Source: Brachyspira murdochii DSM 12563
GTDB taxonomy: Bacteria > Spirochaetota > Brachyspiria > Brachyspirales > Brachyspiraceae
Assembly: GCF_000092845.1 (NCBI RefSeq)
Contig: NC_014150.1
Location: forward strand, 2,169,510-2,233,509
Direction: 5' to 3'
DNA: 64,000 nt
Under the pieces are notes generated by a model that did no database searches, was not told the origin of the DNA, and saw only the letters and a program-made list of their open reading frames with translations. The position numbers were made by a program, and so were the translations under genes. This document shows positions 20,985-43,292 of this stretch, piece after piece (the first letter of the stretch is position 1; every line of letters begins with the position of its first letter).

Positions 20985-23900
20985 TTAGTTAGATGAAAGT
21001 CCTATAAAGAATGATTTTAATCCTCCTTTATCATTTTCTACCGGAACAAATATCATATGAGATATATCTTCTCTGTCAGAAGCATCAAATTTATTTTTTA
21101 GAGAATCAGAAGAAAACGGGTCTGATACATATAAAGTTTTTTTATGCGATAAAATCTTTTTAAATAAAGCCTCATTCTCATTTATATTTAATTTATCTTT
21201 TGTAGCATCAGATATATTCTGAGATTCATCTATACTGTAGCTGCCGTCATTTTTTTTTGTAAGCATAGCTGCATGTTTTATATCAAGACCAGACTGCTCT
21301 TTTATCCAATTAAGCATGTCATGCATATTTTTATTGATAAATTTTTTACCCCTGATTGATTTTAATACATTTTTCCATCCGGCTGTCATGTTCTCTTTTA
21401 CTTTTTCTTCTGCCTCTCTGTAATAATCATCAGGTATTTTAGGTACCTCTTCAGGGTCATATAAATCTTTATCTGTAAGGTCGTCTGTATCAAATGTGTC
21501 TTTTTCACTTGCAGGTTTTACTACTTCTCCATCATCATATTCTTCTCTGAAATTAGGTGATAAATTAGAGTTATGATTATCGCTGTTTTCTTCATCATCA
21601 TAATCTCCAAGAAGAAAATCTCTGTTAAGAGAGAAGTTAAAAGCATCGCTTGAAGAAAAATACTCTTCTTCTTTTTTTACTATTTCATCTTCTAAAATAG
21701 AACCATGACTTATCAAAATGTCCCCCTCGTTATTATCATCTATAATATCATCAATGCCTTTTATTATATCCTCATTTTTATTATTGTCTATATTACTATT
21801 ATCAATTGTCTCTTCTAGTTTATCATCATCTTCTTTTATACTATCTGAATTTTCTTCATTATATGAATCAGGTATATCGTCCATATTTTCAATCGTATCA
21901 TCTATATTATCATCATCATTATTATCTTCACTTTTATTTTCTAGCTCATCATTCAAATTAGGTATGTCGTCTAGATTTTCTATAGTATCATCTATATTAT
22001 TATCATCATCGTTATTGTCTTTGCCTTTATTTTCTAGCTCATCATTCAAATTAGGTATGTCGTCTAGGTTTTCTATAGTATCATCTATATTATTATCATC
22101 ATCATCGTTATTGTCTTCGCCTTTATTTTCTAGCTCATCATTCAAATTAGGTATGTCATATAAGTTTTCTATAGTATCATCTATATTACTATCATTATTA
22201 GCAGTATCTAAATTATTTGCTTCATCATCATCTGCAATATTATCAGCATCAAGAAGTTCATCATCAGTATACTCTTTCATCTCTGGCATACTTTCATCTT
22301 TATTTTCTTCTTCTTTGTTATCTTCTTCATCGTTTATAATGTCGTCCAAGTTAGGTACATCTTCATCATCATCTACAATATTATCAGCATCAAGGAGTTC
22401 ATCATCAGTATACTCTTTCATTTCCGGCATACTTTCATCTTTATTTTCTTCTTCTTTGTTATCTTCTTCATCGTTTATAATGTCGTCCAAGTTAGGTACA
22501 TCTTCATCATCATCTACAATATTATCAGCATCAAGAAGTTCATCGTCAGTATACTCTTTCATCTCGGGCATACTTTCATCTTTATTTTCTTCTTCTTTGT
22601 TATCTTCTTCATCGTTTATAATGTCGTCCAAGTTAGGTACATCTTCATCATCTTCTATGATATTATCAGCATCAAGAAGTTCATCGTCAGTATACTCTTT
22701 CATCTCGGGCATACTTTCATCTTTATTATCTTCTTCTTTGTTATCTTCTTCATCGTTTATAATGTCGTCCAAGTTAGGTACATCTTCATCATCATCTACA
22801 ATATTATCAGCATCAAGGAGTTCATCATCAGTATACTCTTTCATTTCCGGCATACTTTCATCTTTATTTTCTTCTTCTTTGTTATCTTCTTCATCGTTTA
22901 TAATGTCGTCCAAGTTAGGTACATCTTCATCATCTTCTATGATATTATCAGCGTCAAGAAGTTCATCGTCAGTATACTCTTTCATTTCCGGCATACTTTC
23001 ATCTTTATTTTCTTCTTCTTTGTTATCTTCTTCATCGTTTATAATGTCGTCCAAGTTAGGTACATCTTCATCATCTTCTATGATATTATCAGCATCAAGA
23101 AGTTCATCGTCAGTATACTCTTTCATCTCGGGCATACTTTCATCTTTATTCTCTTCTTCTTTGTTATCTTCTTCATCGTTTATAATGTCGTCCAAGTTAG
23201 GTACTTCGTAATCATCTTCTATGATATTATCAGCGTCAAGAAGTTCATCGTCAGTATACTCTTTCATTTCCGGCATACTTTCATCTTTATTTTCTTCTTC
23301 TTTGTTATCCTCTTCATCATTTATAATATCGTCCAAGTTAGGTACTTCGTCATCATCTTCTATGATATTATCAGCATCAAGAAGTTCATCGTCAGTATAC
23401 TCTTTCATTTCCGGCATACTTTCATCTTTATTATCTTCTTCTATGTTTTCTTCTTCATCGTTTATAATATCGTCCAAGTTAGGTACATCTTCATCATCTT
23501 CTATGATATTATCAGCATCAAGAAGTTCATCGTCAGTATACTCTTTCATTTCCGGCATACTTTCATCTTTATTATCTTCTTCTATGTTATCTTCTTCATC
23601 ATTTATAATATCGTCCAAGTTAGGTACTTCATCAAAATCTTCATCATTTACTATGCTGTCTAAGGAAGATAAATCGCCTATTTTTATACTCTCATCTTCT
23701 TTTTTATCCTCTTCAAGTACATCATCTAAAGAAGATAAATCTCCTAATTTTAGACTTTCATCATTATCATCATTATTATCCTCTTCATCATCTTTTACAG
23801 TCTCGCCTCCGTCTTCAAGTACATCATCTAAAGAGGATAAATCGCCTATTTTTATACTGTCATCATCTTCTTCATTATCTTTTTTTATTTCAATTTCTTC

Positions 23901-24995
23901 TACATCATCTATATCAGGAAGATCAACTTTATTTGCTTTTGTGATTCTGTCTCTTTTATTATTAAAGTATTTTATACTATCATCATCTAATGAATCTATT
24001 GCATCTATATCGTAGTCATCTATATTAAACTCTTCATCATTGACAATATTGGCATTATCATAGTTATTTATAGGAGGTTCGCTTTCATCATATATATTTT
24101 CTTCTTTATCATCATCATCTTCATCATCATCATTGTTAGATTTATTTCTTTCAAGTAAAGAAGTAGTTATTAAAAATAATGATGATAATGATAAAAGAGC
24201 AAGTATAATATATTTTAAATATTTCTGTATAATAGGAACATTTAATTCTAATATACCAATGCTGAAATTATCTATATCTTTGACTTTGCTTGAATAGAAT
24301 GTAAAAGTATTATTATCAACATCAATAGTACCAGAACTTCCAATATCTTTATCCATATATTGTGTAAGACTGTCTCTTGATATGCTGTTTATATCTATAG
24401 AAGGGTTATGATATACAACGCCATTAGGAAGAACTACAAAGTTTAAGTTGTAAGAAGTATTTTCAAATATTTTTTTAAATACGCTTGCAACTATATATCC
24501 TACTTCTATCCCTCTGTCATTTTTAATTGGTTTTACAAAATAAACACCGTCATAATCTTTATCAAAGAATGCTCTGGCATTAGATTTTTTATAGCTTTCC
24601 AAATCTACAGGTTTAGTTTTTACTGGAGAAGAAAATACTGGCTTGCCGTCTGCTAAATATAATGCTACAGTATCAAAAGGATAGTTGCCGCTTCTGAATA
24701 TTGATATTATTCTGTCTCTTTCGGCTTCATCTATACCGTTTAATATAACCTGCTGAAGTAAGTTTATAAAAGGATAGCTTTCTACTATTTTATTAAGTCT
24801 GTCATCATAGTCTTTTACGAGATTTACTATACTGTTTTGACAAATCAAAGCATTTCTGTCAAGTTTTTTTGTATCAACATCAAATGCATCTTTTTTTAGT
24901 CCGAATACAAATGTTATAAATAAAGCAAGAACTATTATATTGATTAAAATAGATATATATACAAAGACAGATATCTTACCATGTTTATCAGACAT
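20985..24995 (-). CDS. Membrane sensor-like protein with giant acidic repeat tail
   Basis: The 1336-residue protein has a membrane helix at about 8-31 and a periplasmic sensor-like region (about 35-255, Cache-like in style: YPFDTVALYLADGKPVFSS and GVYFVKPIKNDRGIEVGYIV). A second helix follows at about 258-280. The cytoplasmic tail of about 900 residues is Asp/Glu/Asn-rich. It includes ten 47-residue repeats with the core MKEYTDDELLDADNI and VPNLDDIINDEE, and about four shorter DDIPNLNDELENK repeats. The last 135 residues look folded and GAF-like (MTAGWKNVLKSIRGKKF to FVPVENDKGGLKSFFIGL). No kinase, receptor or cyclase output domain is seen. GAGGAGA precedes the ATG. It follows a similar gene by 33 bp. 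Confidence 0.7.
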   Translation of the reverse strand: MSDKHGKISVFVYISILINIIVLALFITFVFGLKKDAFDVDTKKLDRNALICQNSIVNLVKDYDDRLNKIVESYPFINLLQQVILNGIDEAERDRIISIFRSGNYPFDTVALYLADGKPVFSSPVKTKPVDLESYKKSNARAFFDKDYDGVYFVKPIKNDRGIEVGYIVASVFKKIFENTSYNLNFVVLPNGVVYHNPSIDINSISRDSLTQYMDKDIGSSGTIDVDNNTFTFYSSKVKDIDNFSIGILELNVPIIQKYLKYIILALLSLSSLFLITTSLLERNKSNNDDDEDDDDKEENIYDESEPPINNYDNANIVNDEEFNIDDYDIDAIDSLDDDSIKYFNNKRDRITKANKVDLPDIDDVEEIEIKKDNEEDDDSIKIGDLSSLDDVLEDGGETVKDDEEDNNDDNDESLKLGDLSSLDDVLEEDKKEDESIKIGDLSSLDSIVNDEDFDEVPNLDDIINDEEDNIEEDNKDESMPEMKEYTDDELLDADNIIEDDEDVPNLDDIINDEEENIEEDNKDESMPEMKEYTDDELLDADNIIEDDDEVPNLDDIINDEEDNKEEENKDESMPEMKEYTDDELLDADNIIEDDYEVPNLDDIINDEEDNKEEENKDESMPEMKEYTDDELLDADNIIEDDEDVPNLDDIINDEEDNKEEENKDESMPEMKEYTDDELLDADNIIEDDEDVPNLDDIINDEEDNKEEENKDESMPEMKEYTDDELLDADNIVDDDEDVPNLDDIINDEEDNKEEDNKDESMPEMKEYTDDELLDADNIIEDDEDVPNLDDIINDEEDNKEEENKDESMPEMKEYTDDELLDADNIVDDDEDVPNLDDIINDEEDNKEEENKDESMPEMKEYTDDELLDADNIVDDDEDVPNLDDIINDEEDNKEEENKDESMPEMKEYTDDELLDADNIADDDEANNLDTANNDSNIDDTIENLYDIPNLNDELENKGEDNNDDDDNNIDDTIENLDDIPNLNDELENKGKDNNDDDNNIDDTIENLDDIPNLNDELENKSEDNNDDDNIDDTIENMDDIPDSYNEENSDSIKEDDDKLEETIDNSNIDNNKNEDIIKGIDDIIDDNNEGDILISHGSILEDEIVKKEEEYFSSSDAFNFSLNRDFLLGDYDDEENSDNHNSNLSPNFREEYDDGEVVKPASEKDTFDTDDLTDKDLYDPEEVPKIPDDYYREAEEKVKENMTAGWKNVLKSIRGKKFINKNMHDMLNWIKEQSGLDIKHAAMLTKKNDGSYSIDESQNISDATKDKLNINENEALFKKILSHKKTLYVSDPFSSDSLKNKFDASDREDISHMIFVPVENDKGGLKSFFIGLSSN
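22216..23627 (-). repeat. Array of ten 141-bp coding repeats
   Basis: In-frame repeats of 141 bp (47 codons) encode the VPNLDDIINDEE and MKEYTDDELLD units. Neighbouring copies are nearly identical at DNA level, so expansion and contraction by recombination is likely, without breaking the frame. The antisense frame is open only because the repeat is biased. Edges are approximate. Confidence 0.85.
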
Positions 24996-25028
24996 ATAAT
25001 CTCCTCTAAAAAACTACACTATTTTTAT

Positions 25029-27098
<2,070 letters not shown>

Positions 27099-27244
27099 AA
27101 TGCTTAAGCCTTTAATAAAAATTGTTGAGTATATAAAAAACTACTATTAGTTATCGGCTAAAGCAAATTTTACTTGAAAGTTTTATTTTGCGATTAGAAA
27201 GTATAAAAGTATATAAAAAAGTATCTAATAAGAAATAAAAAATA

Positions 27245-27457
27245 CCTCCGCTGAGCCGTATACGACATAAATGCGCCTGACTTTTCGCGTCAGGTGGGCT
27301 CCTCAGAAACATGACCTTGATTTCTCAAAACCGTATCGCGATACCGGCGAGCCTATCATTAATGCTTCGCTCCAGATCCCTAATGCATTAATTTATACTG
27401 GCGCAAGAATGTACAATCGCTTAACGAGAACAGCAGAGTTGTATACAATATAAATGC
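27245..27457. other. GC-rich structured island flanked by short direct repeats
   Basis: GTATACGACATAAATGC (27258-27274) and GTATACAATATAAATGC (27441-27457) are 15/17 identical direct repeats bracketing about 165 bp of DNA far richer in G+C than its surroundings. The interior holds a CCTGAC/GTCAGG hairpin (27276-27294) and a perfect 12-bp palindrome GTATCGCGATAC (27333-27344). The plus-strand frame at 27271-27453 (60 codons) has no recognisable features and no ribosome-binding site. The rest of the 440-bp gap is AT-rich and seems empty. It could be an inserted element or the scar of one. Confidence 0.5.
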
Positions 27458-27574
27458 TTTTTTATTATTTGTCAATACTGTAAAAAATATATTAACATAA
27501 TAACTGCTATTGACAAACATTTTGAGAAAAATATAATAATGTTACGCTTATTTTTATTTAATGAGGAATTTTAC

Positions 27575-28180
27575 ATGATTAGAAATATAATTTCGGATAT
27601 AGGTAATGTGCTGTATGAGTTTAGTACAAGCAGTATTTTAGATGAATATGTAGATGAAAGCGATAGAAAAGAGTTTTTTGATAATACTTTTGGAAGTAAG
27701 AATTGGAATTTAATGGATAAGGGAGAAATTAGCTTTGAAGATTCAAGAAAATATTTTATAGATAAATGTCCTAAATATGAAGAACTTATCAATAAAATTT
27801 TTGATACTTCTTTAACATTATGCCTCAATAAACATCATAATAATATTAATTTATTAAAAGAATATAAAGATAAAGGTTTTTCTATATATTATTTATCTAA
27901 TATGCCTTCTGAAACTTTTGAGGTTTTGAGAAAAGAAACTGACTTTTTTGATAATACTTGTATTGGGGGCGTTATTTCAGCTCATATAAAGATGATTAAG
28001 CCTAATAGAGATATTTATGAATATTTTTTGAGTAAATTTAATTTGAATGCAAATGAATGCGTATTTATAGATGATAATGCTGATAATGTAAAAACAGCTA
28101 TAGATATTGGAATAAATGCTTTTCAGCTTAAAACAATAGATGATATGCATGCGGTTTTAAAAGAAATTTTACATAAATAA
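27575..28180 (+). CDS. HAD-superfamily hydrolase
   Basis: I choose the ATG at 27575 because GAGGA precedes it; an upstream in-frame ATG at 27539 lacks a site. The 201-residue product begins MIRNIISDIGNVLYEF, the HAD motif I in the DIGNV form seen in YihX-like phosphatases. It continues with YYLSNMPSE (motif II Ser), KMIKPNRDIYEYFL (motif III Lys) and CVFIDDNADNVKTA (motif IV acidic pair). It probably dephosphorylates a small metabolite; the substrate is unknown. It is followed after 29 bp by the histidine kinase gene. Confidence 0.88.
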   Translation: MIRNIISDIGNVLYEFSTSSILDEYVDESDRKEFFDNTFGSKNWNLMDKGEISFEDSRKYFIDKCPKYEELINKIFDTSLTLCLNKHHNNINLLKEYKDKGFSIYYLSNMPSETFEVLRKETDFFDNTCIGGVISAHIKMIKPNRDIYEYFLSKFNLNANECVFIDDNADNVKTAIDIGINAFQLKTIDDMHAVLKEILHK

Positions 28181-28209
28181 TATTTTATTATAAGTTATTA
28201 GCAAATAAT

Positions 28210-30000
28210 ATGAAGTTTATAAAGAATATTTTTAATAATATAAAAAAAAGATATGGAATATTTCTTCCTTCTGTTATTAGTATATTTACATTGATTAGTC
28301 TTATAGCCTCTGTGTGGATAAGCACATTTATATATGAACCTAATATAGTAAATCCGTTTTATGTGTTTGCGGTTATTTTTTTTCCATTTACAAGCATCAT
28401 AATAGGAATAATACTCGTAATAAAGTTTATAATAGATGCTATACTTAAAAAAGAAGGTTCGCATTTAAAATTGGTTATAGTATTCATAATGGGGCTTATG
28501 ACTGTTATGCCTAGTATGTTGGTCAGCAAAATATCGACTTATATAATTAAAAGCAATTTAGATTTGTTTTTAGATCAAAATGTCAATGCTTCAGTGTCAT
28601 ATGTAATAGATTTGTCTAATATTGAAATCATCAATAAAAGAAACTATATGACAGATGTTATTAATAGTGTCGGCATAAATTATTTTAATAACATATATCA
28701 AAACATTAAATCTGGGAATTTTGATTATAATAGCATATATAAAATGGTTAAAGAATCAGAATATTTTAATAATATAGTTTTTTTATCAAATTATTATAAT
28801 GGTAATAATATAATATTCTTTAATTCTGGCAATTATATACCTTTGGATATCAATTATAAACTTGATAATAAAGATACTATATTTGTGAACAGTGAATATA
28901 ACGGACTTTTTTATGTAAATGCTATAATACCTTTAACTTACAGTAATAATTATGTAATATGGTCTGAAGTTATGCCTAGAAACTATATTGAAATTAGAAA
29001 CAGTGCTTTGGAGGCTTTTAGGATATATAATTCTGTTAATATGTTTGCAAATGAGTTTTCTATAATACTCAGTCTTTTATATTTGTTTATATTAGGTATA
29101 TCAACATTTTTTTCTATAATACTTGGTATTGCTCTTTCAAGGCTTATAACAAGACCCATCAGTTTGATACTTAGTGCTACAAACTCAATAACTAATGCTG
29201 ATTTTAATATAGATATGAAGCTTGGCGGTGTTCATGATATGAGAAATTTGATTCATAGATTTAATGTAATGGCTAGAGCTTTAAAATACCATAGAGATAG
29301 AGAAAATATAAGAGCTAGGCTTGAAACTTGGAGGGAGGCTGCTATAAAAGTAGCCCATGAGATAAAAAATCCGCTTATGCCTATAATAATGAATGCTGAA
29401 CTTATTGAAAGAAAATTATCTGTAAATATGACAGAAAAAGATGTTGAAAGATCAAAAAGATCTACAGCTGTTATAGTAAAAAATGCCAATGTAATATCTA
29501 GTCTTATAAAATCTTTTTCAGAGTTCTCTTTTGCTATTAAACTTTCTGATGAGAAACAGTCTATTAATAGTGTTATTATTGAGGCAGCTGAATCTTTTAA
29601 AAATACTAATAATATAATATTTAATGTTGTTTTAAGTAAGCATGATTATTTTATTAATATGGATAGAGAAAAATTTATAATGGCATTTAGAAATTTAATA
29701 AAAAATGCTGTAGAGGCTATGGAAAACTCTGAAAGATCTATAATTTACATATCTTCATATCATGAGATAATAGATTTAAATGAATTTTTTATAGTAAGTA
29801 TAACAGATACTGGAATAGGTATAGAAAGCGGCAATTTACATAAAATATTTGAGCCTTATTTCACTTCTAAAGATAAAGGTACTGGAATAGGACTTGCTAC
29901 GGTAGAAAAAATCATATCTGAACATAAAGGTACTATAGAGGTTGAATCTATAGCTGGAGAGGGTACTACATTTTTTATAAAGTTTATGATAGAATCATAA
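28210..30000 (+). CDS. NtrY-like membrane sensor histidine kinase
   Basis: The 596-residue kinase has N-terminal membrane helices (about 20-100), a periplasmic sensor region, another helix at about 280-310 and a HAMP-like linker (LITRPISLILSATNSI). The phosphoacceptor His383 lies in VAHEIKNPLMPI; the N box is NLIKNAVEAM, and the ATP lid is DTGIGI followed by FEPYFTSKDKGTGIGLATVE. The HEIKNPL form is typical of NtrY and related kinases. No ordinary response regulator is adjacent; the convergent neighbour is a receiver that lacks the phosphorylated Asp. No clear ribosome-binding site. Confidence 0.92.
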   Translation: MKFIKNIFNNIKKRYGIFLPSVISIFTLISLIASVWISTFIYEPNIVNPFYVFAVIFFPFTSIIIGIILVIKFIIDAILKKEGSHLKLVIVFIMGLMTVMPSMLVSKISTYIIKSNLDLFLDQNVNASVSYVIDLSNIEIINKRNYMTDVINSVGINYFNNIYQNIKSGNFDYNSIYKMVKESEYFNNIVFLSNYYNGNNIIFFNSGNYIPLDINYKLDNKDTIFVNSEYNGLFYVNAIIPLTYSNNYVIWSEVMPRNYIEIRNSALEAFRIYNSVNMFANEFSIILSLLYLFILGISTFFSIILGIALSRLITRPISLILSATNSITNADFNIDMKLGGVHDMRNLIHRFNVMARALKYHRDRENIRARLETWREAAIKVAHEIKNPLMPIIMNAELIERKLSVNMTEKDVERSKRSTAVIVKNANVISSLIKSFSEFSFAIKLSDEKQSINSVIIEAAESFKNTNNIIFNVVLSKHDYFINMDREKFIMAFRNLIKNAVEAMENSERSIIYISSYHEIIDLNEFFIVSITDTGIGIESGNLHKIFEPYFTSKDKGTGIGLATVEKIISEHKGTIEVESIAGEGTTFFIKFMIES

Positions 30001-30004
30001 AAAA

Positions 30005-30361
30005 TTAAAGTGCTTCTATTTTACTTACCAATTTAGTTATATGAGAAGGATATTTCATGCAGGTGATATTCAGCCTTTTAGCCTCTTTTTCCATATCTAA
30101 ATCTATATTTTCATATAGAAAAAATATTGTGAACTCATGAAATTCGGGCATTTTCTGCAATTCACTTATAAACTCTATAACGTTAATCCATACAAGATTA
30201 GGATTGAACACCAATATTCTTATACTGTATTTATATATTTTGCTTATAAGTTCATAAAGATTTTCAGCTATGAACACTTGTATAGATGAGCTTTCAAGAG
30301 CCGCTTTTACTTTGTTGGAGCGGTTATTATCATCATCTATTATTATAGCTGAGTAATTCAT
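30005..30361 (-). CDS. Degenerate receiver-domain protein
   Basis: The 118-residue protein is one receiver-like domain: the acidic pocket IIDDD lies at 7-11, and the last strand carries the usual Lys (TCMKYPSH). At the phosphorylation site the sequence is LVFNPN, with Asn53 where Asp is expected. It is therefore probably not phosphorylated in the usual way, a pseudo-receiver. No output domain follows. It is convergent with the NtrY-like kinase (4 bp apart), so co-transcription is not possible, but a functional link is tempting. Confidence 0.7.
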   Translation of the reverse strand: MNYSAIIIDDDNNRSNKVKAALESSSIQVFIAENLYELISKIYKYSIRILVFNPNLVWINVIEFISELQKMPEFHEFTIFFLYENIDLDMEKEAKRLNITCMKYPSHITKLVSKIEAL

Positions 30362-30388
30362 AGGCCAAACTCATTTAAGATATTGATG

Positions 30389-30472: not shown

Positions 30473-30634
30473 AAAATATTATATTAATAATATAATATCA
30501 TTTTAATTGCTTAGATTATAAATGATACTTTATAAAAATCAAGTATTATGTTATATATTTTTTCTTTTTTTGTGTATATATGTTTTATTTATTGTAAAAT
30601 ATGGTAAAATGATCATATATGATGAGGGTTTGTT

Positions 30635-32881: not shown

Positions 32882-32890
32882 AATATTTGT

Positions 32891-33223: not shown

Positions 33224-33225
33224 TA

Positions 33226-33699
33226 TTAATTAGCTTGATTAAACAAAATTAAGTTCATAAATATTTCGCCTAGTTCAGTTTTATAGTTTATGGACAATAT
33301 TTTATCATTTTCTTTTTCAAGCATAGACATTTGCTCGCTCATAAGTATAGCAGGCGGTGTCATATCCAAATCTATATGTTTTGTAGAGAGATCATTAATA
33401 GCACTTCCTGCAACCATATTAACAAATTCTTTAATTGTGGCAATAAATATATCATCTATTGAAGTTATAGCTTCCATATTAAGAGCAGAAGCTAATTTAA
33501 AAGCAGTAGCTTTGCTCATATTAAACATAAGTCTTCCGCTTAAATCTCCTGTAATACCTACAAAAACTATAACGCCTCCAACATGATTGGCATTTCTGTA
33601 TATTCTAACATCGCCTTTTCCAACTTTAGAATTAAAATAGCTTTTTAATATAATTACTGTACCTTTGCTGAAAGCATTTACTACATCTAAGTCAAACAT
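33226..33699 (-). CDS. cheX: CheX-family chemotaxis phosphatase
   Basis: The 157-residue protein shows the CheC/CheX/FliY phosphatase pattern. GLTG-like GITGDLSGRLMFNMS lies at about 48-62, followed by the single active-site motif EFVNMVAG with Glu91 and Asn94 (ExxN). One motif rather than two is the mark of CheX. CheX removes phosphate from CheY and is the usual CheY phosphatase in spirochaetes. It is cytoplasmic. A small membrane protein follows in the same operon. Confidence 0.85.
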   Translation of the reverse strand: MFDLDVVNAFSKGTVIILKSYFNSKVGKGDVRIYRNANHVGGVIVFVGITGDLSGRLMFNMSKATAFKLASALNMEAITSIDDIFIATIKEFVNMVAGSAINDLSTKHIDLDMTPPAILMSEQMSMLEKENDKILSINYKTELGEIFMNLILFNQAN

Positions 33700-33896
33700 A
33701 TTTATAACACCATATAATTTTATTTTTATTTATTATCGGAAATGAGTATTATATTTTTAACAGTATAAATTATCAAGATTAAAATATAATTATTTTTACT
33801 ATAAATAATATATTATATAAATCTTGACTACAAATAAAAAGAATGATATCATTAAATAAAATTATATAGTTATATAAACAATTAACCGATAATGTC

Positions 33897-34214: not shown

Positions 34215-34217
34215 ATA

Positions 34218-37200
34218 GTGGAAAAAGAGTTCGCTAGTATTTTTGAGGATAATAAAGACATCTCACTCAATGAGTATGATATTAATAAACTTATAGAAAG
34301 AACTATAAAAATTAAAGAGAATGAATTTCCTATAATATCTATAGGAAATACTGATAAAGACAGCCCAAAAATACAAGGTGTAGTAACTTCTAAAGAATAT
34401 AATAAAGATATACTCGAATTTAACAACGTTCATGCAAAAGCAAATAGTGATAAATCAGATTCTTTAAATAGTGCATACACAGATGAAGAAAATAAACAAT
34501 ATAAAAATTTAGAAGAAAGTTTAAGTTTATCTGAAAATGATTTAGAATCTGCAGGTAATATTATAGATTCTGAATTAGATATGTCTTCGCTTTTCCAAAA
34601 TGCATTAAATAATACCGAAGCAAATGATGATAAAAAAGATAATGATAATAATAAAGAAGAAGATTTATTAAATGAACAAAATTATGTAGTTGATAATATA
34701 TATTCTAGAGAAGAAAACGATATTCATAAAAGTGCTGAAAAAGAAGCATTAACGGAAGATGAATTGAATACTCTTGAAACAGTTGAAGATTTTAATTTAG
34801 AAGATTCTTTTGAAAAAAATGAAAATCCTTTAGATGAAGAAGAAGAATTTGAAGATACATCTGATATTTCAAATATAGGAATGAAAGAATATACTGATGA
34901 AGAACTTCTTGATATAAATAATATATTAGATGATGAGGAGTTTTCTTCTAATGAGACATTATCAGAAAACTCTATTGAAAATCCTTTAGAAGAAACTTTA
35001 TCAATAGAAGAAGACCAACCAGAAGAAAGTACGGATAGTACCTCAGATAATGAAGAAACATCAGACCTAGAGATGAAAGAATACAGTGATGAAGAGCTTT
35101 TGGATTCTAGTAATATCTTGGAAGAAGCTGCTGCAATTTCAGAAGAAACATCATCAATAGAAGAAGAACAATCAGAAGAAAGTACGGATAGTACCTCAGA
35201 TAATGAAGAAACATCAGATATAGAGATGAAAGAATACAGTGATGAAGAGCTTTTGGATTCTAGTAATATCTTAGAAGAAGCTGCTGCAATTTCAGAAGAA
35301 ACTTCTTCAATAGAAGAAGAACAATCAGAAGAAAGTACGGATAATACCTCAGATAATGAAGAAACATCAGACCTAGAGATGAAAGAATACAGTGATGAAG
35401 AGCTTTTGGATTCTAGTAATATCTTGGAAGAAGCTGCTGCAATTTCAGAAGAAACTTCATCAATAGAAGAAGAACAATCAGAAGAAAGTACGGATAATAC
35501 CTCAGATAATGAAGAAACATCAGACCTAGAGATGAAAGAATACAGTGATGAAGAGCTTTTGGATTCTAGTAATATCTTAGAAGAAGCTGCTGCAATTTCA
35601 GAAGAAACATCATCAAAAGAAGAAGAACAATCAGAAGAAAGTACGGATAGTACCTCAGATAATGAAGAAACATCAGACCTAGAGATGAAAGAATACAGTG
35701 ATGAAGAGCTTTTGGATTCTAGTAATATCTTGGAAGAAGCTGCTGCTGCAATTTCAGAAGAAACATCATCAAAAGAAGAAGAACAATCAGAAGAAAGTAC
35801 GGATAGTACCTCAGATAATGAAGAAACATCAGACCTAGAGATGAAAGAATACAGTGATGAAGAGCTTTTGGATTCTAGTAATATCTTAGAAGAAGCTGCT
35901 GCAATTTCAGAAGAAACATCATCAAAAGAAGAAGAACAATCAGAAGAAAGTACGGATAATACCTCAGATAATGAAGAAACATCAGACCTAGAGATGAAAG
36001 AATACAGTGATGAAGAGCTTTTGGATTCTAGTAATATCTTGGAAGAAGCTGCTGCAATTTCAGAAGAAACATCATCAAAAGAAGAAGAACAATCAGAAGA
36101 AAGTACTGATAGTACCTCAGATAATGAAGAAACATCAGACCTAGAGATGAAAGAATACAGTGATGAAGAGCTTTTGGATTCTAGTAATATCTTGGAAGAA
36201 GAAGCTGCAATTTTAGAAGAAACATCATCAAAAGAAGAAGAACAATCAGAAGAAAGTACGGATAATACCTCAGATAATGAAGAAACATCAGACCTAGAGA
36301 TGAAAGAATACAGTGATGAAGAGCTTTTGGATTCTAGTAATATCTTAGAAGAAGCTGCTGCAATTTCAGAAGAAACATCATCAAAAGAAGAAGAACAATC
36401 AGAAGAAAGTACGGATAATACTTTAGATAATGAAGAAACATCAGACATAGAGATGAAAGAATACAGTGATGAAGAGCTTTTGGATTCTAGTAATATCTTG
36501 GAAGAAGAAGCTGCAATTTTAGAAGAAACATCATCAATAGAAGAAGAACAATCAGAAGAAAGTACGGATAATACCTCAGATAATGAAGAAACATCAGACC
36601 TAGAGATGAAAGAATACAGTGATGAAGAGCTTTTGGATTCTAGTAATATCTTGGAAGAAGAAGCTGCAATTTTAGAAGAAACATCATCAATAGAAGAAGA
36701 ACAACCAGAAGAAAGTACGGATAGTACCTCAGATAATGAAGAAACATCAGACCTAGAGATGAAAGAATACAGTGATGAAGAGCTTTTGGATTCTAGTAAT
36801 ATCTTGGAAGAAGAAACTCCAATTTCAGAAGGAACATCATCAATAGAAGAAGAACAATCAGAAGAAAGTACGGATAATACCTCAGATAATGAAGAAACAT
36901 CAGATATAGAGATGAAAGAATACAGTGATGAAGAGCTTTTGGATTCTAGTAATATTTTGGAAGAAGAAACTACAATTTCAGAAGGAACATCATCAATAGA
37001 AGAAGACCAACCAGAAGAAAGTACGGATAATACCTCAGATAATGAAGAAACATCAGATATAGAGATGAAAGAATACAGTGATGAAGAGCTTTTGGATTCT
37101 AGTAATATTTTGGAAGAAGAAACTACAATTTCAGAAGGAACATCATCAAAAGAAGAAGAACAACCAGAAGAAAGTACGGATAATACCTCAGATAATGAAG

Positions 37201-40200
37201 AAACATCAGACCTAGAGATGAAAGAATACAGTGATGAAGAGCTTTTGGATTCTAGTAATATCTTGGAAGAAGAAGCTAAATATATTAAAGAATTATCTGG
37301 TGAAGAAGTTTTAGATGATAATTTAGAAGAATTAGGAAACATAGAAGAAAGTTTATCATTAGAAGATTTGGAAAATATCGAAGAGGGTTTGGAAGAGCTT
37401 GAGCATATAGAAGAAGATATATCAGAATCTGTAGCTTCAGAGGAAGAAAGTTTGTCATTAGATAAATATATGCTTATAGATTCAGAAGACGGAACTAAAA
37501 TAAAAAGAACTTCTTATGCTAAAGATAATATAGATTTAGAAAATGCTGTATTTTCAGATGAGCAAAATTATGTTGTAAAGCATATATATTCTGAGGAGCA
37601 AGATGAACTTATAAAAGAAGTATCAGAAAAAGACAGTGTAACAGAGGAAGAATTAGAGGAATTAGATTTTGTAGAAGAATTTGATTTAAATAACTTTTTT
37701 GCTAATAAAAGTACAGATAGCAGTAATATATCTGAAGATGATATAGAAGTTCCTGATTTAGATGATGATACATTTATACCTGTAAATGATGAAGATTTAG
37801 CAATGTCTGATGAAGAATTAGATCTGCCTGATATAGAAGATGAAGAACCTAGAGATGCTGATTTATTAAAAGAAGACAATCTAAAAGAAGATGAAAAAGT
37901 CATAGAATATGATAAATATAATAATAGAGATGTTGTAGTACCTGATATAGATAATGTTGATTATATAGATGAATCTAACTATATTAATGAAGCAGATAAC
38001 ACTGAAGATGATGTTATACAGTTATCTGGAAATGAACTTGATTTAATAACTAAAGATTTTGATATTAATGAAAAAATAGATAATGATAATATTTCTGATA
38101 AAAATGATGCGGAATCTTCAGATGAAGAGCTTGAAGAAATTGATGATGGTTATATAAATACCAATGAGGAAGACATAACTGATGATTACAGAGAAAATAA
38201 TTATACATTATCAGAAATGTCGGATGAAGAGCTTGAAGAAATTGATGATGGTTATATAAATACCAATGAAGAAGACATAACTGATGATTATAGAGAAAAT
38301 AATTATACATTATCAGAAATGTCGGATGAAGAGCTTGAAGAAATTGATGATGGTTATATAAATACCAATGAAGAAGACATAACTGATGATTACAGAGAAA
38401 ATAATTATACATTATCAGAAATGTCGGATGAAGAGCTTGAAGAAATTGATGATGGTTATATAAATACCAATGAGGAAGACATAACTGATGATTATAGAGA
38501 AAATAATTATACATTATCAGAAATGTCGGATGAAGAGCTTGAAGAAATTGATGATGGTTATATAAATACTAATGAAGAAGACATAACTGATGATTATAGA
38601 GAAAATAATTATACATTATCAGAAATGTCGGATGAAGAGCTTGAAGAAATTGATGATAATTATGAATATGATTTAAAAAAAGAAGAATTATTATCTGACG
38701 AAATAAAAGAAGCATCTTCATCAGATATAGAAGATACTTCTATGTTATCAGAAAATATTGCAGAAAATGAAAGTAATTCATCATCAGAAGAAGATTTATC
38801 CGAAGAAAACGTATATATTTCAGATACATCAAAAGAACCAGAAGAGGCATCATTAGAAGAATTAAGTGAGCAAGCAGAAGGAGTTTCAGATAGTTCAGAA
38901 GAACCTTTAGAATTAAAAGAAGAATTACCAGAAGAAAAAAACGTAGAAGAAACTTCAGAACCAACTAATGATTATATAAAAAGAATGCATGAAGAGTATT
39001 TGAATAATCATCATACAGAAGATAACATTCCCTATAATGATGATTATATAAGTAAATTCAAAAACCTTCATGAAGAATATATAAAAGAAAATGTAAAGAA
39101 AGAGGAAGAAACTTCTGAGGTATCAGAAGATATTTCAAATCAATCTGAAGATTTGGAAGAAAGTAAAGAAGATATATTATCAGAAGAGATAACTGAACAA
39201 ACAGATGAAATTGAGAAATCATCTCCAGAACCAACTAATGATTATATAAAAAGAATGCATGAAGAGTATTTGAATAATCATCGTACAGAAGATAATATTC
39301 CCTCTAATGATGATTATATAAGTAAATTCAAAAATCTTCATGAAGAATATATAAAAGAAAATGTAAAGAAAGAGGAAGAAACTCCTGAAGTATCAGAAGA
39401 TATTTCAAATCAATCTGAGGATTTGGAAGAAAGTAAAGAAGATATATTATCAGAAGAGATAACTGAACAAACAGATGAAATTGAGAAATCATTTCCAGAA
39501 CCAACTAATGATTATATAAAAAGAATGCATGAAGAGTATTTGAATAATCATCGTACAGAAGATAACATTCCCTATAATGATGATTATATAAGTAAATTCA
39601 AAAACCTTCATGAAGAATATATAAAAGAAAATGTAAAGAAAGAGGAAGAAACTTCTGAGGTATCAGAAGATATTGAAGAAGAAATAGAAGATATTTCAAA
39701 TCAATCTGAGGATTTGGAAGAAAGTAAAGAAGATATATTATCAGAAGAGATAACTGAACAAACAGATGAAATTGAGAAATCATCTCCAGAACCAACTAAT
39801 GATTATATAAAAAGAATGCATGAAGAGTATTTGAATAATCATCGTACAGAAGATAACATTCCCTATAATGATGATTATATAAGTAAATTCAAAAACCTTC
39901 ATGAAGAATATATAAAAGAAAATGTAAAGAAAGAGGAAGAAACTCCTGAAGTATCAGAAGATATTTCAAATCAATCTGAAGATTTGGAAGAAAATAAAGA
40001 ATATCCTTTGCCAGAGGATACAAACGAACAAATTGAAGAATTGGCAGAAGAAGAAATAATTAATAATGAAGAAGATTTGACAGAAGAAGAAAAATCAATG
40101 TATCACAGCTATTTGAATGGTGATCAATCTTCTAATGATGATGTATCAGAAGAAGTAGAAACATCAGAGGTACCTACTACAGATTATAATGAAGAATCAG

Positions 40201-43200
40201 AAAAGATAGAGGAAGAAGCAAATCAAGAAGAGACAGTACCAGAAGAATTAATCGAACAAACAGAAGAAGTTTCAGAGAGTACAGAAGAGCCTTCCGATAT
40301 AAAAGAAGAATTGGCAGAAGAAGAAATAATTAATAATGAAGAAGATTTGACAGATGAAGATAAAGCTATGATAGAAGGCTATTTAGATAAAGTAGACAAT
40401 TATGCCGAAGAAGATTTAACAGAAGAAGAAAAATTAATGTATCACAGCTATTTGAATAGTGAACAATCTTCTAATGATGATGTATCAGAAGAAGTAGAAA
40501 CATCAGAGGCACCTACTACAGATTATAATGAAGAATCAGAAAAGATAGAGGAAGAAGCAAATCAAGAAGAGACAGTACCAGAAGAATTAATCGAACAAAC
40601 AGAAGAAGTTTCAGAGAGTACAGAAGAGCCTTCCGATATAAAAGAAGAATTGGCAGAAGAAGAAATAATTAATAATGAAGAAGATTTGACAGATGAAGAT
40701 AAAGCTATGATAGAAGGCTGTTTAGATAAAGTAGACAATTATGCCGAAGAAGATTTAACAGAAGAAGAAAAATTAATGTATCACAGCTATTTGAATAGTG
40801 AACAATCTTCTAATGATGATGTATCAGAAGAAGTAGAAACATCAGAAGAGCCAAATATTGATAATGTAGAGTTAGAGAAAGCAGATGAAGAAGAAAACAA
40901 AGAAGAATTTTCATCAGATGAATTAACAGAACAAACAGAAGAAGTTTCAGAGAGTACAGAAGAGCCTTCCGATATAAAAGAAGAATTGGCAGAAGAAGAG
41001 ATAATTAATAATGAAGAAGATTTGACAGACGAAGATAAAGCTATGATAGAAGGCTATTTAGATAAGGTAGACAATCATGCCGAAGAAGATTTAACAGAAG
41101 AAGAAAAATCAATGTATCACAGCTATTTGAATGGTGATCAATCTTCTAATGATGATGTATCAGAAGAAGTAGAAACATCAGAAGAGTCAAATATTGATAA
41201 TGTAGAATTAGATAAAGCAGAGGAAGAAGCAAATCAAGAAGAGAGAGTACCAGAAGAATTAATCGAACAAACAGAAGAAGTTTCAGAGAGTACAGAAGAG
41301 CCTTCCGATATAAAAGAAGAATTGGCAGAAGAAGAGATAATTAATAATGAAGAAGATTTGACAGACGAAGATAAAGCTATGATAGAAGGCTATTTAGATA
41401 AGGTAGACAATCATGCCGAAGAAGATTTAACAGAAGAAGAAAAATCAATGTATCACAGCTATTTGAATGGTGATCAGTCTTCTAATGATGATGTATCAGA
41501 AGAAGTAGAAACATCAGAGGCACCTACTACAGATTATAATGAAGAATTAGAAAAGATAGAGGAAGAAGCAAATCAAGAAGAGACAGTACCAGAAGAATTA
41601 ATCGAACAAATAGAAGAAGTTTCAGAGAGTACAGAAGAGCCTTCCGAATTAAAAGAAGAATTAGAATCAGAAGAAGAAATAATTAATAATGAAGAAGATT
41701 TGACAGACGAAGATAAAGCTATGATAGAAGGCTATTTAGATAAGGTAGACAATCATGCCGAAGAAGATTTAACAGAAGAAGAAAAATCAATGTATCACAG
41801 CTATTTGAATGGTGATCAGTCTTCTAATGATGATGTATCAGAAGAAGTAGAAACATCAGAGGCACCTACTACAGATTATAATGAAGAATTAGAAAAGATA
41901 GAGGAAGAAGCAAATCAAGAAGAGACAGTACCAGAAGAATTAATCGAACAAATAGAAGAAGTTTCAGAGAGTACAGAAGAGCCTTCCGATATAAAAGAAG
42001 AATTGGCAGAAGAAGAAATAATTAATAATGAAGAAGATTTGACAGACGAAGATAAGGCTATGATAGAAGGCTATTTAGATAAGGTAGACAATCATGCCGA
42101 AGAAGATTTAACAGAAGAAGAAAAATCAATGTATCACAGCTATTTGAATAGTGATCAATCTTCTAATGATGATGTATCAGAAGAAGTAGAAACATCAGAG
42201 GCACCTACTACAGATTATAATGAAGAATTAGAAAAGATAGAGGAAGAAGCAAATCAAGAAGAGACAGTACCAGAAGAATTAATCGAACAAATAGAAGAAG
42301 TTTCAGAGAGTACAGAAGAGCCTTCCGAATTAAAAGAAGAATTAGAATCAGAAGAAGAAATAATTAATAATGAAGAAGATTTGACAGACGAAGATAAAGC
42401 TATGATAGAAGGCTATTTAGATAAGGTAGACAATCATGCCGAAGAAGATTTAACAGAAGAAGAAAAATCAATGTATCACAGCTATTTGAATGGTGATCAG
42501 TCTTCTAATGATGATGCAGGAGAAGAAACAGAAATAACAGAAGAAGCTGATGTGGGAAATGATGAAGTACAAGAAGAAATTAAAGAAAATGATAAAAAAG
42601 ATGATTTAAAAGACGATGATATACTTAAAACAAAAGAAGATAATATAGTAGATGAAGACCTTGAAAATATATTATCTGACAATAATGTTCAAATAGATGA
42701 AATAAGAGATTCTGATTTAAATATGTTAGAAAATATTATAAAAGGTAAGGAAGAGGAAGACGGAGAAGAACTTATACGTATAAATAATAAAACAATTGAA
42801 AGTAATATTCAGCAAGAAGAAACTAAAGTTAAGTCTGTAGAAAATTTTGATTCTATGGAAGAGCTTTTAAATAAGGAGACAAATATGTCTGAAGAAAAAG
42901 AATTACAAACTATAGAAAAAGATAATGTAGACAGCAGTGTTGCAGTTGAAGATGAGTTTAAATTGGGTGATGATAACGGACCTATATTAATTGAAGAAGA
43001 ACATAAGCCTTCCAATAGCAGTGATGATGACGATTTTGACGGAGAGATAACACAGTCCGATTTGGATTATGCTATTAAATTGTTTGAATCAGAAGAGACA
43101 AACGGAAGCAATAATGAATATAGTTCTAAACAGGATATTTTATTATCAGAAAATGAAATTAATAAATTTAAAAAGCTATTTGGTTATTTCAAAAATATTG

Positions 43201-43292
43201 TAGAAAAGATGTCTCCTGAGGATTTAAATGATTTCTCTAAAACAGAATTTTATGATATGTATTCATCATTATTTAGAAAATTTGGCGATTAA
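34218..43292 (+). CDS. Giant acidic repeat protein, 3024 residues
   Basis: The frame starts with GTG and is open for 3024 codons. It has no signal peptide or membrane helix, so it is probably cytoplasmic unless anchored through its upstream neighbour. Four repeat arrays follow each other. A is fifteen 51-residue units around MKEYSDEELLDSSNI (from about residue 286); B is five 34-residue units SDEELEEIDDGYIN; C is four units of about 90 residues with NDYIKRMHEEYLNN; D is seven or eight units of about 113 residues with DLTDEDKAMIEGYLDKV and MYHSYLN. EQNYVV(D/K)xIYS modules flank array A (about residues 153 and 1114). The C terminus (about 2970-3024) looks folded. Composition is dominated by Glu, Ser and Asp. 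Function unknown. Confidence 0.75.
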   Translation: MEKEFASIFEDNKDISLNEYDINKLIERTIKIKENEFPIISIGNTDKDSPKIQGVVTSKEYNKDILEFNNVHAKANSDKSDSLNSAYTDEENKQYKNLEESLSLSENDLESAGNIIDSELDMSSLFQNALNNTEANDDKKDNDNNKEEDLLNEQNYVVDNIYSREENDIHKSAEKEALTEDELNTLETVEDFNLEDSFEKNENPLDEEEEFEDTSDISNIGMKEYTDEELLDINNILDDEEFSSNETLSENSIENPLEETLSIEEDQPEESTDSTSDNEETSDLEMKEYSDEELLDSSNILEEAAAISEETSSIEEEQSEESTDSTSDNEETSDIEMKEYSDEELLDSSNILEEAAAISEETSSIEEEQSEESTDNTSDNEETSDLEMKEYSDEELLDSSNILEEAAAISEETSSIEEEQSEESTDNTSDNEETSDLEMKEYSDEELLDSSNILEEAAAISEETSSKEEEQSEESTDSTSDNEETSDLEMKEYSDEELLDSSNILEEAAAAISEETSSKEEEQSEESTDSTSDNEETSDLEMKEYSDEELLDSSNILEEAAAISEETSSKEEEQSEESTDNTSDNEETSDLEMKEYSDEELLDSSNILEEAAAISEETSSKEEEQSEESTDSTSDNEETSDLEMKEYSDEELLDSSNILEEEAAILEETSSKEEEQSEESTDNTSDNEETSDLEMKEYSDEELLDSSNILEEAAAISEETSSKEEEQSEESTDNTLDNEETSDIEMKEYSDEELLDSSNILEEEAAILEETSSIEEEQSEESTDNTSDNEETSDLEMKEYSDEELLDSSNILEEEAAILEETSSIEEEQPEESTDSTSDNEETSDLEMKEYSDEELLDSSNILEEETPISEGTSSIEEEQSEESTDNTSDNEETSDIEMKEYSDEELLDSSNILEEETTISEGTSSIEEDQPEESTDNTSDNEETSDIEMKEYSDEELLDSSNILEEETTISEGTSSKEEEQPEESTDNTSDNEETSDLEMKEYSDEELLDSSNILEEEAKYIKELSGEEVLDDNLEELGNIEESLSLEDLENIEEGLEELEHIEEDISESVASEEESLSLDKYMLIDSEDGTKIKRTSYAKDNIDLENAVFSDEQNYVVKHIYSEEQDELIKEVSEKDSVTEEELEELDFVEEFDLNNFFANKSTDSSNISEDDIEVPDLDDDTFIPVNDEDLAMSDEELDLPDIEDEEPRDADLLKEDNLKEDEKVIEYDKYNNRDVVVPDIDNVDYIDESNYINEADNTEDDVIQLSGNELDLITKDFDINEKIDNDNISDKNDAESSDEELEEIDDGYINTNEEDITDDYRENNYTLSEMSDEELEEIDDGYINTNEEDITDDYRENNYTLSEMSDEELEEIDDGYINTNEEDITDDYRENNYTLSEMSDEELEEIDDGYINTNEEDITDDYRENNYTLSEMSDEELEEIDDGYINTNEEDITDDYRENNYTLSEMSDEELEEIDDNYEYDLKKEELLSDEIKEASSSDIEDTSMLSENIAENESNSSSEEDLSEENVYISDTSKEPEEASLEELSEQAEGVSDSSEEPLELKEELPEEKNVEETSEPTNDYIKRMHEEYLNNHHTEDNIPYNDDYISKFKNLHEEYIKENVKKEEETSEVSEDISNQSEDLEESKEDILSEEITEQTDEIEKSSPEPTNDYIKRMHEEYLNNHRTEDNIPSNDDYISKFKNLHEEYIKENVKKEEETPEVSEDISNQSEDLEESKEDILSEEITEQTDEIEKSFPEPTNDYIKRMHEEYLNNHRTEDNIPYNDDYISKFKNLHEEYIKENVKKEEETSEVSEDIEEEIEDISNQSEDLEESKEDILSEEITEQTDEIEKSSPEPTNDYIKRMHEEYLNNHRTEDNIPYNDDYISKFKNLHEEYIKENVKKEEETPEVSEDISNQSEDLEENKEYPLPEDTNEQIEELAEEEIINNEEDLTEEEKSMYHSYLNGDQSSNDDVSEEVETSEVPTTDYNEESEKIEEEANQEETVPEELIEQTEEVSESTEEPSDIKEELAEEEIINNEEDLTDEDKAMIEGYLDKVDNYAEEDLTEEEKLMYHSYLNSEQSSNDDVSEEVETSEAPTTDYNEESEKIEEEANQEETVPEELIEQTEEVSESTEEPSDIKEELAEEEIINNEEDLTDEDKAMIEGCLDKVDNYAEEDLTEEEKLMYHSYLNSEQSSNDDVSEEVETSEEPNIDNVELEKADEEENKEEFSSDELTEQTEEVSESTEEPSDIKEELAEEEIINNEEDLTDEDKAMIEGYLDKVDNHAEEDLTEEEKSMYHSYLNGDQSSNDDVSEEVETSEESNIDNVELDKAEEEANQEERVPEELIEQTEEVSESTEEPSDIKEELAEEEIINNEEDLTDEDKAMIEGYLDKVDNHAEEDLTEEEKSMYHSYLNGDQSSNDDVSEEVETSEAPTTDYNEELEKIEEEANQEETVPEELIEQIEEVSESTEEPSELKEELESEEEIINNEEDLTDEDKAMIEGYLDKVDNHAEEDLTEEEKSMYHSYLNGDQSSNDDVSEEVETSEAPTTDYNEELEKIEEEANQEETVPEELIEQIEEVSESTEEPSDIKEELAEEEIINNEEDLTDEDKAMIEGYLDKVDNHAEEDLTEEEKSMYHSYLNSDQSSNDDVSEEVETSEAPTTDYNEELEKIEEEANQEETVPEELIEQIEEVSESTEEPSELKEELESEEEIINNEEDLTDEDKAMIEGYLDKVDNHAEEDLTEEEKSMYHSYLNGDQSSNDDAGEETEITEEADVGNDEVQEEIKENDKKDDLKDDDILKTKEDNIVDEDLENILSDNNVQIDEIRDSDLNMLENIIKGKEEEDGEELIRINNKTIESNIQQEETKVKSVENFDSMEELLNKETNMSEEKELQTIEKDNVDSSVAVEDEFKLGDDNGPILIEEEHKPSNSSDDDDFDGEITQSDLDYAIKLFESEETNGSNNEYSSKQDILLSENEINKFKKLFGYFKNIVEKMSPEDLNDFSKTEFYDMYSSLFRKFGD
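35016..37275 (+). repeat. Array A: fifteen 153-bp coding repeats
   Basis: Units of 153 bp (51 codons) encode MKEYSDEELLDSSNI plus a variable Glu/Ser linker. One unit carries an extra Ala codon. A first degenerate unit at about 34880 reads MKEYTDEELLDINNI, closer to the repeats of the minus-strand gene at 20985-24995. Copies are nearly identical in DNA. Edges are approximate. Confidence 0.85.
38121..38650 (+). repeat. Array B: five 102-bp coding repeats
   Basis: Five in-frame units of 102 bp (34 codons) begin SDEELEEIDDGYINTNEED and are almost identical in DNA sequence; a sixth partial unit closes the array. Confidence 0.85.
38961..40010 (+). repeat. Array C: four coding repeats of 270-291 bp
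   Basis: Units start with the codons for PTNDYIKRMHEEYLNN at 38961, 39231, 39501 and 39792. The third unit is 21 bp longer, through an added seven-codon acidic insert. Confidence 0.85.
40043..42520 (+). repeat. Array D: seven to eight coding repeats of about 340 bp
   Basis: MYHSYLN occurs eight times and DEDKAMIEGYLDKVDN seven times in this stretch. These two segments resemble each other, so each large unit may itself be a doubled smaller motif of the form LT(D/E)E(D/E)KxM followed by YL. Confidence 0.8.

What the first reader, a model, noticed from the sequence alone, without database searches (positions are those of the whole stretch)
20985..43292. Two giant acidic proteins at separate loci share the repeat core MKEY(S/T)D(E/D)ELLD
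Seen: ten units with MKEYTDDELLDADNI in the minus-strand sensor gene (20985-24995) and fifteen with MKEYSDEELLDSSNI in the plus-strand gene (34218-43292). The first degenerate unit of the latter (MKEYTDEELLDINNI) looks intermediate, and both proteins also use (D/E)VP(D/N)LDD words. Such a specific shared core in differently spaced arrays (47 and 51 residues) implies common descent or a shared binding partner. Inference: a membrane-bound and a soluble protein may be built to bind the same module many times over, as in a scaffold.
Basis: partly seen in the sequence, partly recalled or inferred. Interest (0 to 1): 0.78.

Follow-up and report, generated by a model that had tools for sequence, protein, structure and literature searches.

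The report
Shared docking motif in spirochaete proteins
Three otherwise unrelated Brachyspira proteins, two of them large and repetitive, carry the same short peptide signature in their floppy parts, which suggests that all three dock onto one still unknown partner and hints at an undescribed scaffold inside these spirochaetes.

Summary
In 26 Brachyspira genomes the strong matches I assigned lie in A, B or C, save two array fragments in one assembly. C has the motif, mostly once, in 23 of 25 readable genomes, on both sides of the genus tree; A and B have it only on one 18-genome side, as arrays of varied length. Spacers diverge, the core does not. Within arrays codons are near-identical; between genes synonymous codons match close to chance. 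This fits a selected docking motif rather than recent copying. A is a dCache-TM-disordered-GAF-type protein. B is the Brachyspira form of an unannotated protein found in 223 of 296 Spirochaetota genomes sampled, beside fliS or MptE-like genes in the lineages checked. Best reading: a predicted-cytoplasmic linear motif recruiting one shared, unknown partner to an envelope sensor, a wall/nucleoid tether and a soluble hub. Partner unidentified; a FliM/CheY-type link was tested and not supported.

The parts
20985..24995 (-). Gene A: membrane protein of 1336 aa, TM1 - dCache-type sensor - TM2 - long acidic disordered linker with 10 motif units - conserved block - GAF-type C-terminus
   Evidence: 26 of 26 Brachyspira genomes; AlphaFold model of the 872-aa G020 ortholog; hydrophobic windows at aa 5 and 258
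24138..24995 (-). A: N-terminal TM1 + dCache-type sensor + TM2 (aa 1-286)
   Evidence: VIA Z 9.3-11.6 in the 50 rows shown, among them LuxQ, DctB, PctA; Pfam dCache below cut-off
22220..23642 (-). A: array of ten 47-aa (141-bp) units, each holding PEMKEYTDDELLDADNI
   Evidence: unit cores at 22248-22280 up to 23517-23549, step 141
21603..21770 (-). A: second conserved linker block (DIIKGIDD...DILISHGSI...YFSSSDAFN...DFLLGD)
   Evidence: Many invariant columns in 14 Brachyspira sequences; coordinates
20988..21509 (-). A: conserved C-terminal region, GAF-type fold
   Evidence: Foldseek hits to GAF domains, e.g. 2qyb E 1.0e-3 (aligned range not printed); weak Pfam GAF_2 in 6 of 19 members; alignment A1 mean column identity 81%
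25029..27098 (-). Gene next to A, same strand, 33 bp apart: 689-aa protein with acidic tail, no motif; a similar pair (by eye) in sister-genus genomes G073 and G065
34218..43292 (+). Gene B: 3024 aa, 37% D/E, net charge -939, no membrane segment
   Evidence: Brachyspira orthologs read through from 679 to 3025 aa
34881..37250 (+). B: 16 motif cores (first one MKEYTDEELLDINNI at 34881-34913; then 15 MKEYSDEELLDSSNI, step 153-156 bp)
38013..38051 (+). B: VIQLSGNELDLIT, the Brachyspira form of a module (ETIALTGDELDNIL) of B orthologs elsewhere
   Evidence: found in 12 of 12 genomes searched, in B frames only
38121..42541 (+). B: three further repeat arrays (34-aa, about 90-aa and 113-aa units)
42981..43289 (+). 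B: conserved C-terminal domain
   Evidence: 223 of 296 Spirochaetota genomes sampled, 118 of 138 genera
33226..33699 (-). CheX gene upstream of B, opposite strand: context
   Evidence: Pfam CheX E 3.5e-18
44198..45819 (+). fliL and fliM downstream of B, after a phosphoribosyltransferase gene (43417-43944): context
   Evidence: Pfam FliL E 1.5e-19, FliM E 1.2e-81, Pribosyltran E 6.2e-19

Best explanation
MKEY(S/T)x(E/D)ELLD is a short linear docking motif in disordered, probably cytoplasmic segments of three unrelated Brachyspira proteins: A (dCache receptor with GAF-type tail), B (soluble acidic giant) and C (HU-type domain, one membrane helix, LysM-like domain). All three probably bind the same cytoplasmic partner. 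C is the likely older carrier and holds 1-3 sites; A and B carry it on one side of the genus tree, multiplied by tandem duplication into arrays of 2-16 sites (in the 7 genomes where both read through). The result would be a multivalent scaffold that gathers the partner at the envelope (A, C) and in the cytosol (B). Shown: sites, specificity, conservation, disorder in the models. Inferred: cytoplasmic side, binding, the single shared partner, scaffold function. Unknown: the partner.
For: Specificity: 29 profile matches in the window genome, all in A, B or C; in the other genomes each strong match that I assigned falls in A, B or C, except two array fragments in G005. C carries it in 23 of 25 genomes with a readable linker (G015 is an N run; G001 degenerate; G019 absent), in a linker otherwise little conserved: E295 invariant and M288, K289, Y291, L296, L297 in at least 90% of 22 sequences. 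Among motif carriers the residues M, K, E, Y, E, L, L, D are 73-100% conserved per gene, flanks mostly 18-70% (A's few residues after the core up to 92%). In G000 synonymous codons match 0.43-0.47 between genes (random expectation 0.56-0.60) but 0.80-0.93 within each gene; C's three copies are identical in protein but not in codons. Motif in A: 15 of 15 scorable genomes on one side of the tree, 0 of 7 on the other; in B: 17 of 17 against 0 of 5. Motif pLDDT about 27-45 in models of A and C.
Against: No partner was found, and none could be searched for by genome-wide profiling here. The motif is missing from all three proteins in G001 and, as far as readable, in G019, and from A and B in the scorable genomes of the second group, so it is not essential to the genus. 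The readable part of A in G014 (697 aa up to a contig end) has none. The motif as a helix is not more amphipathic than its own shuffles (25-47% of shuffles reach it). Membrane sidedness is inferred, and no complex was modelled. Some between-gene codon identities lie above the random value (0.70-0.82 in G007, G018, G021, G025), so an old copying event is not excluded.
Confidence: 0.6

Rival explanations
1. The motif binds a domain carried by A, B or C themselves (for example the GAF-type region of A or the C-terminal domain of B), so the three form a homotypic or mutual network without a fourth partner.
For: All three proteins are conserved in the genus, A and B lie about 12 kb apart in the motif-bearing genomes where both are on one contig, and both candidate domains are well conserved.
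Against: Both regions also occur in genomes and genera without the motif. In the model of an A ortholog with two motifs and the GAF-type region the motif stays at low confidence, which is weak negative evidence.
Confidence: 0.13
2. Neutral repeat expansion: acidic low-complexity genes multiply by slippage and the shared core is coincidence without a binding partner.
For: Copy number varies (A 2-10, B 2-16 in 7 genomes where both arrays read through), B also holds other arrays, and arrays are recent (synonymous identity 0.79-1.00 in 18 of 19 within-gene comparisons; B of G017 0.54).
Against: Composition predicts 2e-8 to 2e-7 occurrences per protein; the core is kept, mostly as a single copy, in C while its flanks change; identical residues despite near-random synonymous codons between genes.
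Confidence: 0.1
3. The motif is a FliM-N/FliY-N type docking helix for phosphorylated CheY: A, B and C would titrate or localise CheY-P near CheX and the flagellar motor.
For: Shares the Phi-(S/T)-x-x-E-(L/I) start with LSQSEIDALL of FliM; B lies between cheX and fliL-fliM; in two other spirochaete lineages B lies next to fliS.
Against: The EIDALL signature (PMC9126983, passages read) is absent; the motif profile scores FliM and FliY of this window at -4.2 and -4.0 bits, away from their N-termini, and the profile of B's other module scores FliY at 0.0 bits. The shared start is a generic helix-capping pattern.
Confidence: 0.06
4. DNA copying (gene conversion) between loci explains the shared core.
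For: Same core, tandem arrays, two loci about 12 kb apart; between-gene codon identities of 0.70-0.82 in G007, G018, G021 and G025.
Against: Between-gene synonymous identity in the window genome is below the random expectation, and the spacers are unrelated.
Confidence: 0.06
5. Host-facing repeat effector, like the tandem-repeat proteins of Ehrlichia.
For: Tandem repeats with short motifs are described there (starts of abstracts in the listing).
Against: A and C are built as inner-membrane proteins with the motif on the inferred cytoplasmic side, B has no membrane segment, and B's family occurs in 118 of 138 genera sampled.
Confidence: 0.02

Closest known systems
Short linear motifs / microdomains in bacterial disordered regions (for example the RNase E tail; PMC4435900, start of abstract seen in a search listing)
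   Same: Short conserved peptide islands in a long disordered region with divergent spacers
   Different: Here the same island sits in three unrelated proteins and is multiplied up to 16 times; partner unknown
HU-CCDC81-type proteins joined to a membrane helix and a wall-binding domain (HU-TM-SPOR of Bacteroidetes, recalled, not from a call)
   Same: C has an HU fold (VIA Z 14.1 to 9io5_T, 10.2 to single-chain IHF), one membrane helix and a LysM-like end; the order-level homolog G162 has Pfam LysM E 2.7e-8 and Bac_DNA_binding E 1.5e-7
   Different: LysM instead of SPOR; carries the docking motif; DNA binding not shown
dCache chemoreceptors and sensor kinases
   Same: A has the membrane-dCache-membrane front
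   Different: No kinase, MCP or cyclase domain found by Pfam; a long disordered array and a GAF-type region instead
FliM/FliY N-terminal CheY-P docking helix
   Same: Generic capped-helix start
   Different: EIDALL not present; profiles do not match

Membership tests
Short linear motif (SLiM) docking site | Short stretch conserved amid divergent flanks | tested here: met
   Core 73-100% against flanks mostly 18-70% among motif carriers in A (13 rows), B (15) and C (22)
Short linear motif (SLiM) docking site | Lies in intrinsically disordered sequence | tested here: met
   pLDDT about 27-45 at the motif in models of A and C; B not modelled
Short linear motif (SLiM) docking site | Recurs in otherwise unrelated proteins | tested here: met
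   A, B and C show different domains by Pfam and fold
Short linear motif (SLiM) docking site | Binds a defined domain of a partner | not testable with these tools
   No partner known; needs pull-down
FliM-N type CheY-P docking peptide | EIDALL signature | tested here: not met
   Motif reads EELLDxxNI; motif profile scores FliM and FliY at -4.2 and -4.0 bits
HU/IHF superfamily (protein C) | HU profile and fold match | tested here: met
   Pfam Bac_DNA_binding in 22 of 22 members at E <= 0.1 (best 1.7e-14); VIA Z 14.1 and 10.2
HU/IHF superfamily (protein C) | DNA binding | not testable with these tools
   The closest fold match is a chain of a gliding-machinery G1-ATPase entry (9io5), so the fold alone does not prove DNA binding
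LysM wall-binding domain (protein C) | Profile or fold match | tested here: inconclusive
   Pfam LysM not among the families listed for Brachyspira C; fold match to Kbp Z 4.6; Pfam LysM E 2.7e-8 in the order-level homolog
dCache sensor (protein A) | dCache fold between two membrane helices | tested here: met
   VIA Z 10-11.6 over about 174-262 residues in the best rows; Pfam below cut-off

The most novel reading that the evidence does not exclude
Brachyspira has an undescribed cytoplasmic scaffold organised by one peptide code: a hub receptor reads the MKEY(S/T)xEELLD site on an envelope sensor (A), on a nucleoid/wall tether (C) and on a soluble giant (B) that is the local version of an unannotated protein present in most Spirochaetota genomes sampled and near flagellar genes. 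Site number sets local avidity and is tuned between species.
Probability: 0.25. Interest if true: 0.8.

Novelty: new variant of a known kind. Interest (0 to 1): 0.6.

Why it matters
If right, it gives a direct handle (a short bait peptide) on how spirochaetes organise sensors, envelope tethers and proteins encoded near flagellar genes. Independently of the motif, B turns out to be the Brachyspira member of a protein family found in 223 of 296 Spirochaetota genomes sampled. The representatives scanned had no convincing family match: two in Pfam and seven in NCBIfam. It sits beside fliS in two lineages and near MptE-like genes in two others checked, so it is a candidate for a core spirochaete function.

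Tried and rejected
FliM/CheY reading: the motif profile scores FliM and FliY of the window at -4.2 and -4.0 bits, the profile of B's other module at -2.2 and 0.0 bits (earlier version). Relation of MKEY to the IALTGDELDNIL module of B: hhalign probability 0.3-1.8%, not supported; that module occurs in B frames only in 12 of 12 genomes. Amphipathic helix: moment not above shuffles. PDB sequence search with the motif profile: two weak hits, E 0.037 and 3.4. Phage collection: no hit. PDB profile searches with A's C-terminus, A's N-terminus and C gave nothing useful. A-B copy-number correlation (Spearman 0.77, permutation p 0.029, 7 genomes) is not used as evidence: small n, related genomes, G009's B is split into two frames. 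Weak profile matches (E 0.016-9.5) in short or unrelated frames of G011, G013, G016, G019, G065 and G146 were taken as chance. Paper searches with nothing on point: searches returned no paper; 30, 68, 87, 88 and 102 were seen as listings; in PMC4955376 four terms were looked up and the passages did not concern these proteins. So I found no description in print in this library, which lacks most subscription journals.

Full report
What was claimed and what is there. The two genes translate as described. A (20985-24995, minus, 1336 aa) holds ten MKEYTDDELLDADNI units exactly 47 aa apart; B (34218-43292, plus, 3024 aa) holds fifteen MKEYSDEELLDSSNI units 51-52 aa apart, preceded at 64 aa by MKEYTDEELLDINNI. 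Composition predicts about 4e-8 and 2e-7 such cores. The VP(D/N)LDD word is not really shared: 10 copies in A, one in B, none in C.

A third carrier. A search of the whole genome (3.24 Mb, one contig) found the motif in one other frame: C, at G000:C1:3020145-3022004 minus (L009:3146-5005), 619 aa, with three copies of PEMKEYSKEELLDINNF. Pfam gives an HU-type domain at its N-terminus, found in 22 of 22 aligned family members at E <= 0.1. The AlphaFold model of C (mean pLDDT 57) matches a chain of the Mycoplasma mobile gliding-machinery ATPase entry (Z 14.1), single-chain IHF (Z 10.2) and, at residues 455-530, the LysM protein Kbp (Z 4.6). Pfam does not list LysM for Brachyspira C, but a clear LysM (E 2.7e-8) sits together with an HU-type domain in the order-level homolog G162. 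Residues 401-429 form a hydrophobic helix. So C is read as HU - linker with motif - membrane helix - LysM-like domain, with the motif on the inferred cytoplasmic side.

A and B themselves. The model of a shorter A ortholog (872 aa, mean pLDDT 54) shows a membrane helix, a dCache-type sensor (Z 10-11.6 in the best rows), a second membrane helix, a disordered linker with the motif (pLDDT 27-40) and a folded C-terminal region; Foldseek hits include GAF domains (2qyb, E 1.0e-3), and Pfam GAF_2 appears weakly in 6 of 19 members. B is 37% acidic with net charge -939 and no membrane segment; it has no convincing Pfam or NCBIfam match. Its last 103 residues were found in 22 of 26 Brachyspira genomes (the four misses are assemblies of about 210-460 contigs) and, with a profile that included sister genera, in 223 of 296 Spirochaetota genomes and 118 of 138 genera (one match in each genome row printed). 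B orthologs read elsewhere are acidic proteins of some 210 to 1240 aa, some cut by contig ends. In two lineages the gene lies beside fliS (Pfam E 1.6e-39 and 2.4e-38), in G043 and G162 near MptE-like genes; in this window it lies between cheX and, past a phosphoribosyltransferase gene, fliL-fliM. A is found in the sister genus as a protein of about 600 aa, and its C-terminal part in two order-level genomes; these carry no motif.

Distribution of the motif. With one query, 24 of 26 Brachyspira genomes have it. A profile gives 25 of 26 at E <= 0.5, but the extra one (G019, E 0.09) is a fragment in a 28-aa frame and is taken as chance; the match list was cut at its tail. Assigned to genes: C has it in 23 of 25 genomes whose linker is readable (G015 is an N run; G001 degenerate; G019 absent). 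On one 18-genome side of the tree A has it in 15 of 15 scorable genomes; not scorable are G006 (N run), G008 and G014 (contig ends; the readable 697 aa of G014's A show none). On the other, 8-genome side A has it in none of 7 scorable genomes (G012 is cut). B has it in 17 of 17 scorable genomes of the first side (G008's piece lacks that part) and in none of 5 scorable genomes of the second (G001, G003, G010, G011, G016). The branch between the two sides has support 88/78 on a tree of A's sensor domain with long outgroup branches, so the direction of change in A and B (gain on one side, or loss on the other) is not settled. C has the motif on both sides and is therefore the likely older carrier. 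Two small array fragments at odd places in one assembly (G005) were also found.

Selection, not recent copying. Among motif carriers the residues M, K, E, Y, E, L, L, D are 73-100% conserved in each gene while flanking positions mostly fall to 18-70%, apart from a few residues after A's core. Within a gene the units are near-identical at synonymous sites (0.79-1.00 in 18 of 19 comparisons over 9 genomes; B of G017 0.54). Between genes of the same genome synonymous codons match at 0.43-0.82 against an expectation of 0.54-0.60; in the window genome 0.43-0.47, but 0.70-0.82 in some comparisons of G007, G018, G021 and G025. The three copies in C of G000 are identical in protein but not in codons. 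This fits tandem duplication inside each gene plus selection for the same peptide in three genes; an old copying event is not excluded.

How it most likely works. The shown parts are: a short conserved island in disordered sequence, confined to three otherwise unrelated proteins, single in most C proteins and multiplied in A and B. The inferred step is that each island docks one copy of the same partner, so that A and C hold the partner at the envelope and B gathers it in the cytosol. I put this at 0.6. No partner was identified. The rivals are binding to a domain of A, B or C themselves (0.13), neutral expansion (0.10), a CheY-type link (0.06, tested and not supported), gene conversion (0.06) and a host-facing role (0.02).

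What is known. Conserved islands in disordered tails are a known kind (RNase E, start of abstract seen in the listing), as are dCache receptors and HU-domain proteins. I found no description of this motif, of A, or of the B family in the library searched, which lacks most subscription journals. I rate it a new variant of a known kind, interest 0.6, because the shared code across three unrelated proteins and the wide B family are surprising and directly testable with a bait peptide, while function remains inferred.

Noticed in passing
window 34218-43292; L256-L271: B belongs to an unannotated acidic protein family found in 223 of 296 Spirochaetota genomes sampled, with a conserved C-terminal domain and an ETIALTGDELDNIL-type module seen in B frames only (12 of 12 genomes searched); neighbours include fliS and MptE-like genes.
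   Followed up: partly
window 38121-42541; L155: B holds three more tandem arrays (34-aa, about 90-aa, 113-aa units); G011's B instead repeats other units, such as IDDNTLIGDDE.
   Followed up: no
window 21603-21770: A has a second conserved linker block (DILISHGSI...YFSSSDAFN...DFLLGD) with many invariant columns in 14 Brachyspira sequences; YFSS..AF is recognisable by eye in sister-genus and order-level homologs.
   Followed up: no
L155, L159: In G011 and G016 the C gene ends about 8 kb beyond the end of B, with genes that look by eye like the phosphoribosyltransferase, fliL, fliM and fliY between them, whereas in the window genome C is 0.8 Mb away.
   Followed up: no
L165 (G005:C8:426240-426473) and L166 (G005:C12): Small fragments of A- and B-type arrays sit among genes that look by eye like outer-membrane and ankyrin-like proteins in one assembly; insertion or misassembly.
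   Followed up: no
L153 (G009): B of G009 is split into two frames inside the motif array; two short frames there also give weak motif matches.
   Followed up: no
window 17912-19171: Two adjacent DUF2589 genes (Pfam E 2.1e-23 and 9.8e-43).
   Followed up: no
window 5830-5877, 11587-11670: Short perfect microsatellites (TATGCTG x 6.9, AGTTC x 5.8, ATTCT x 9.2).
   Followed up: no
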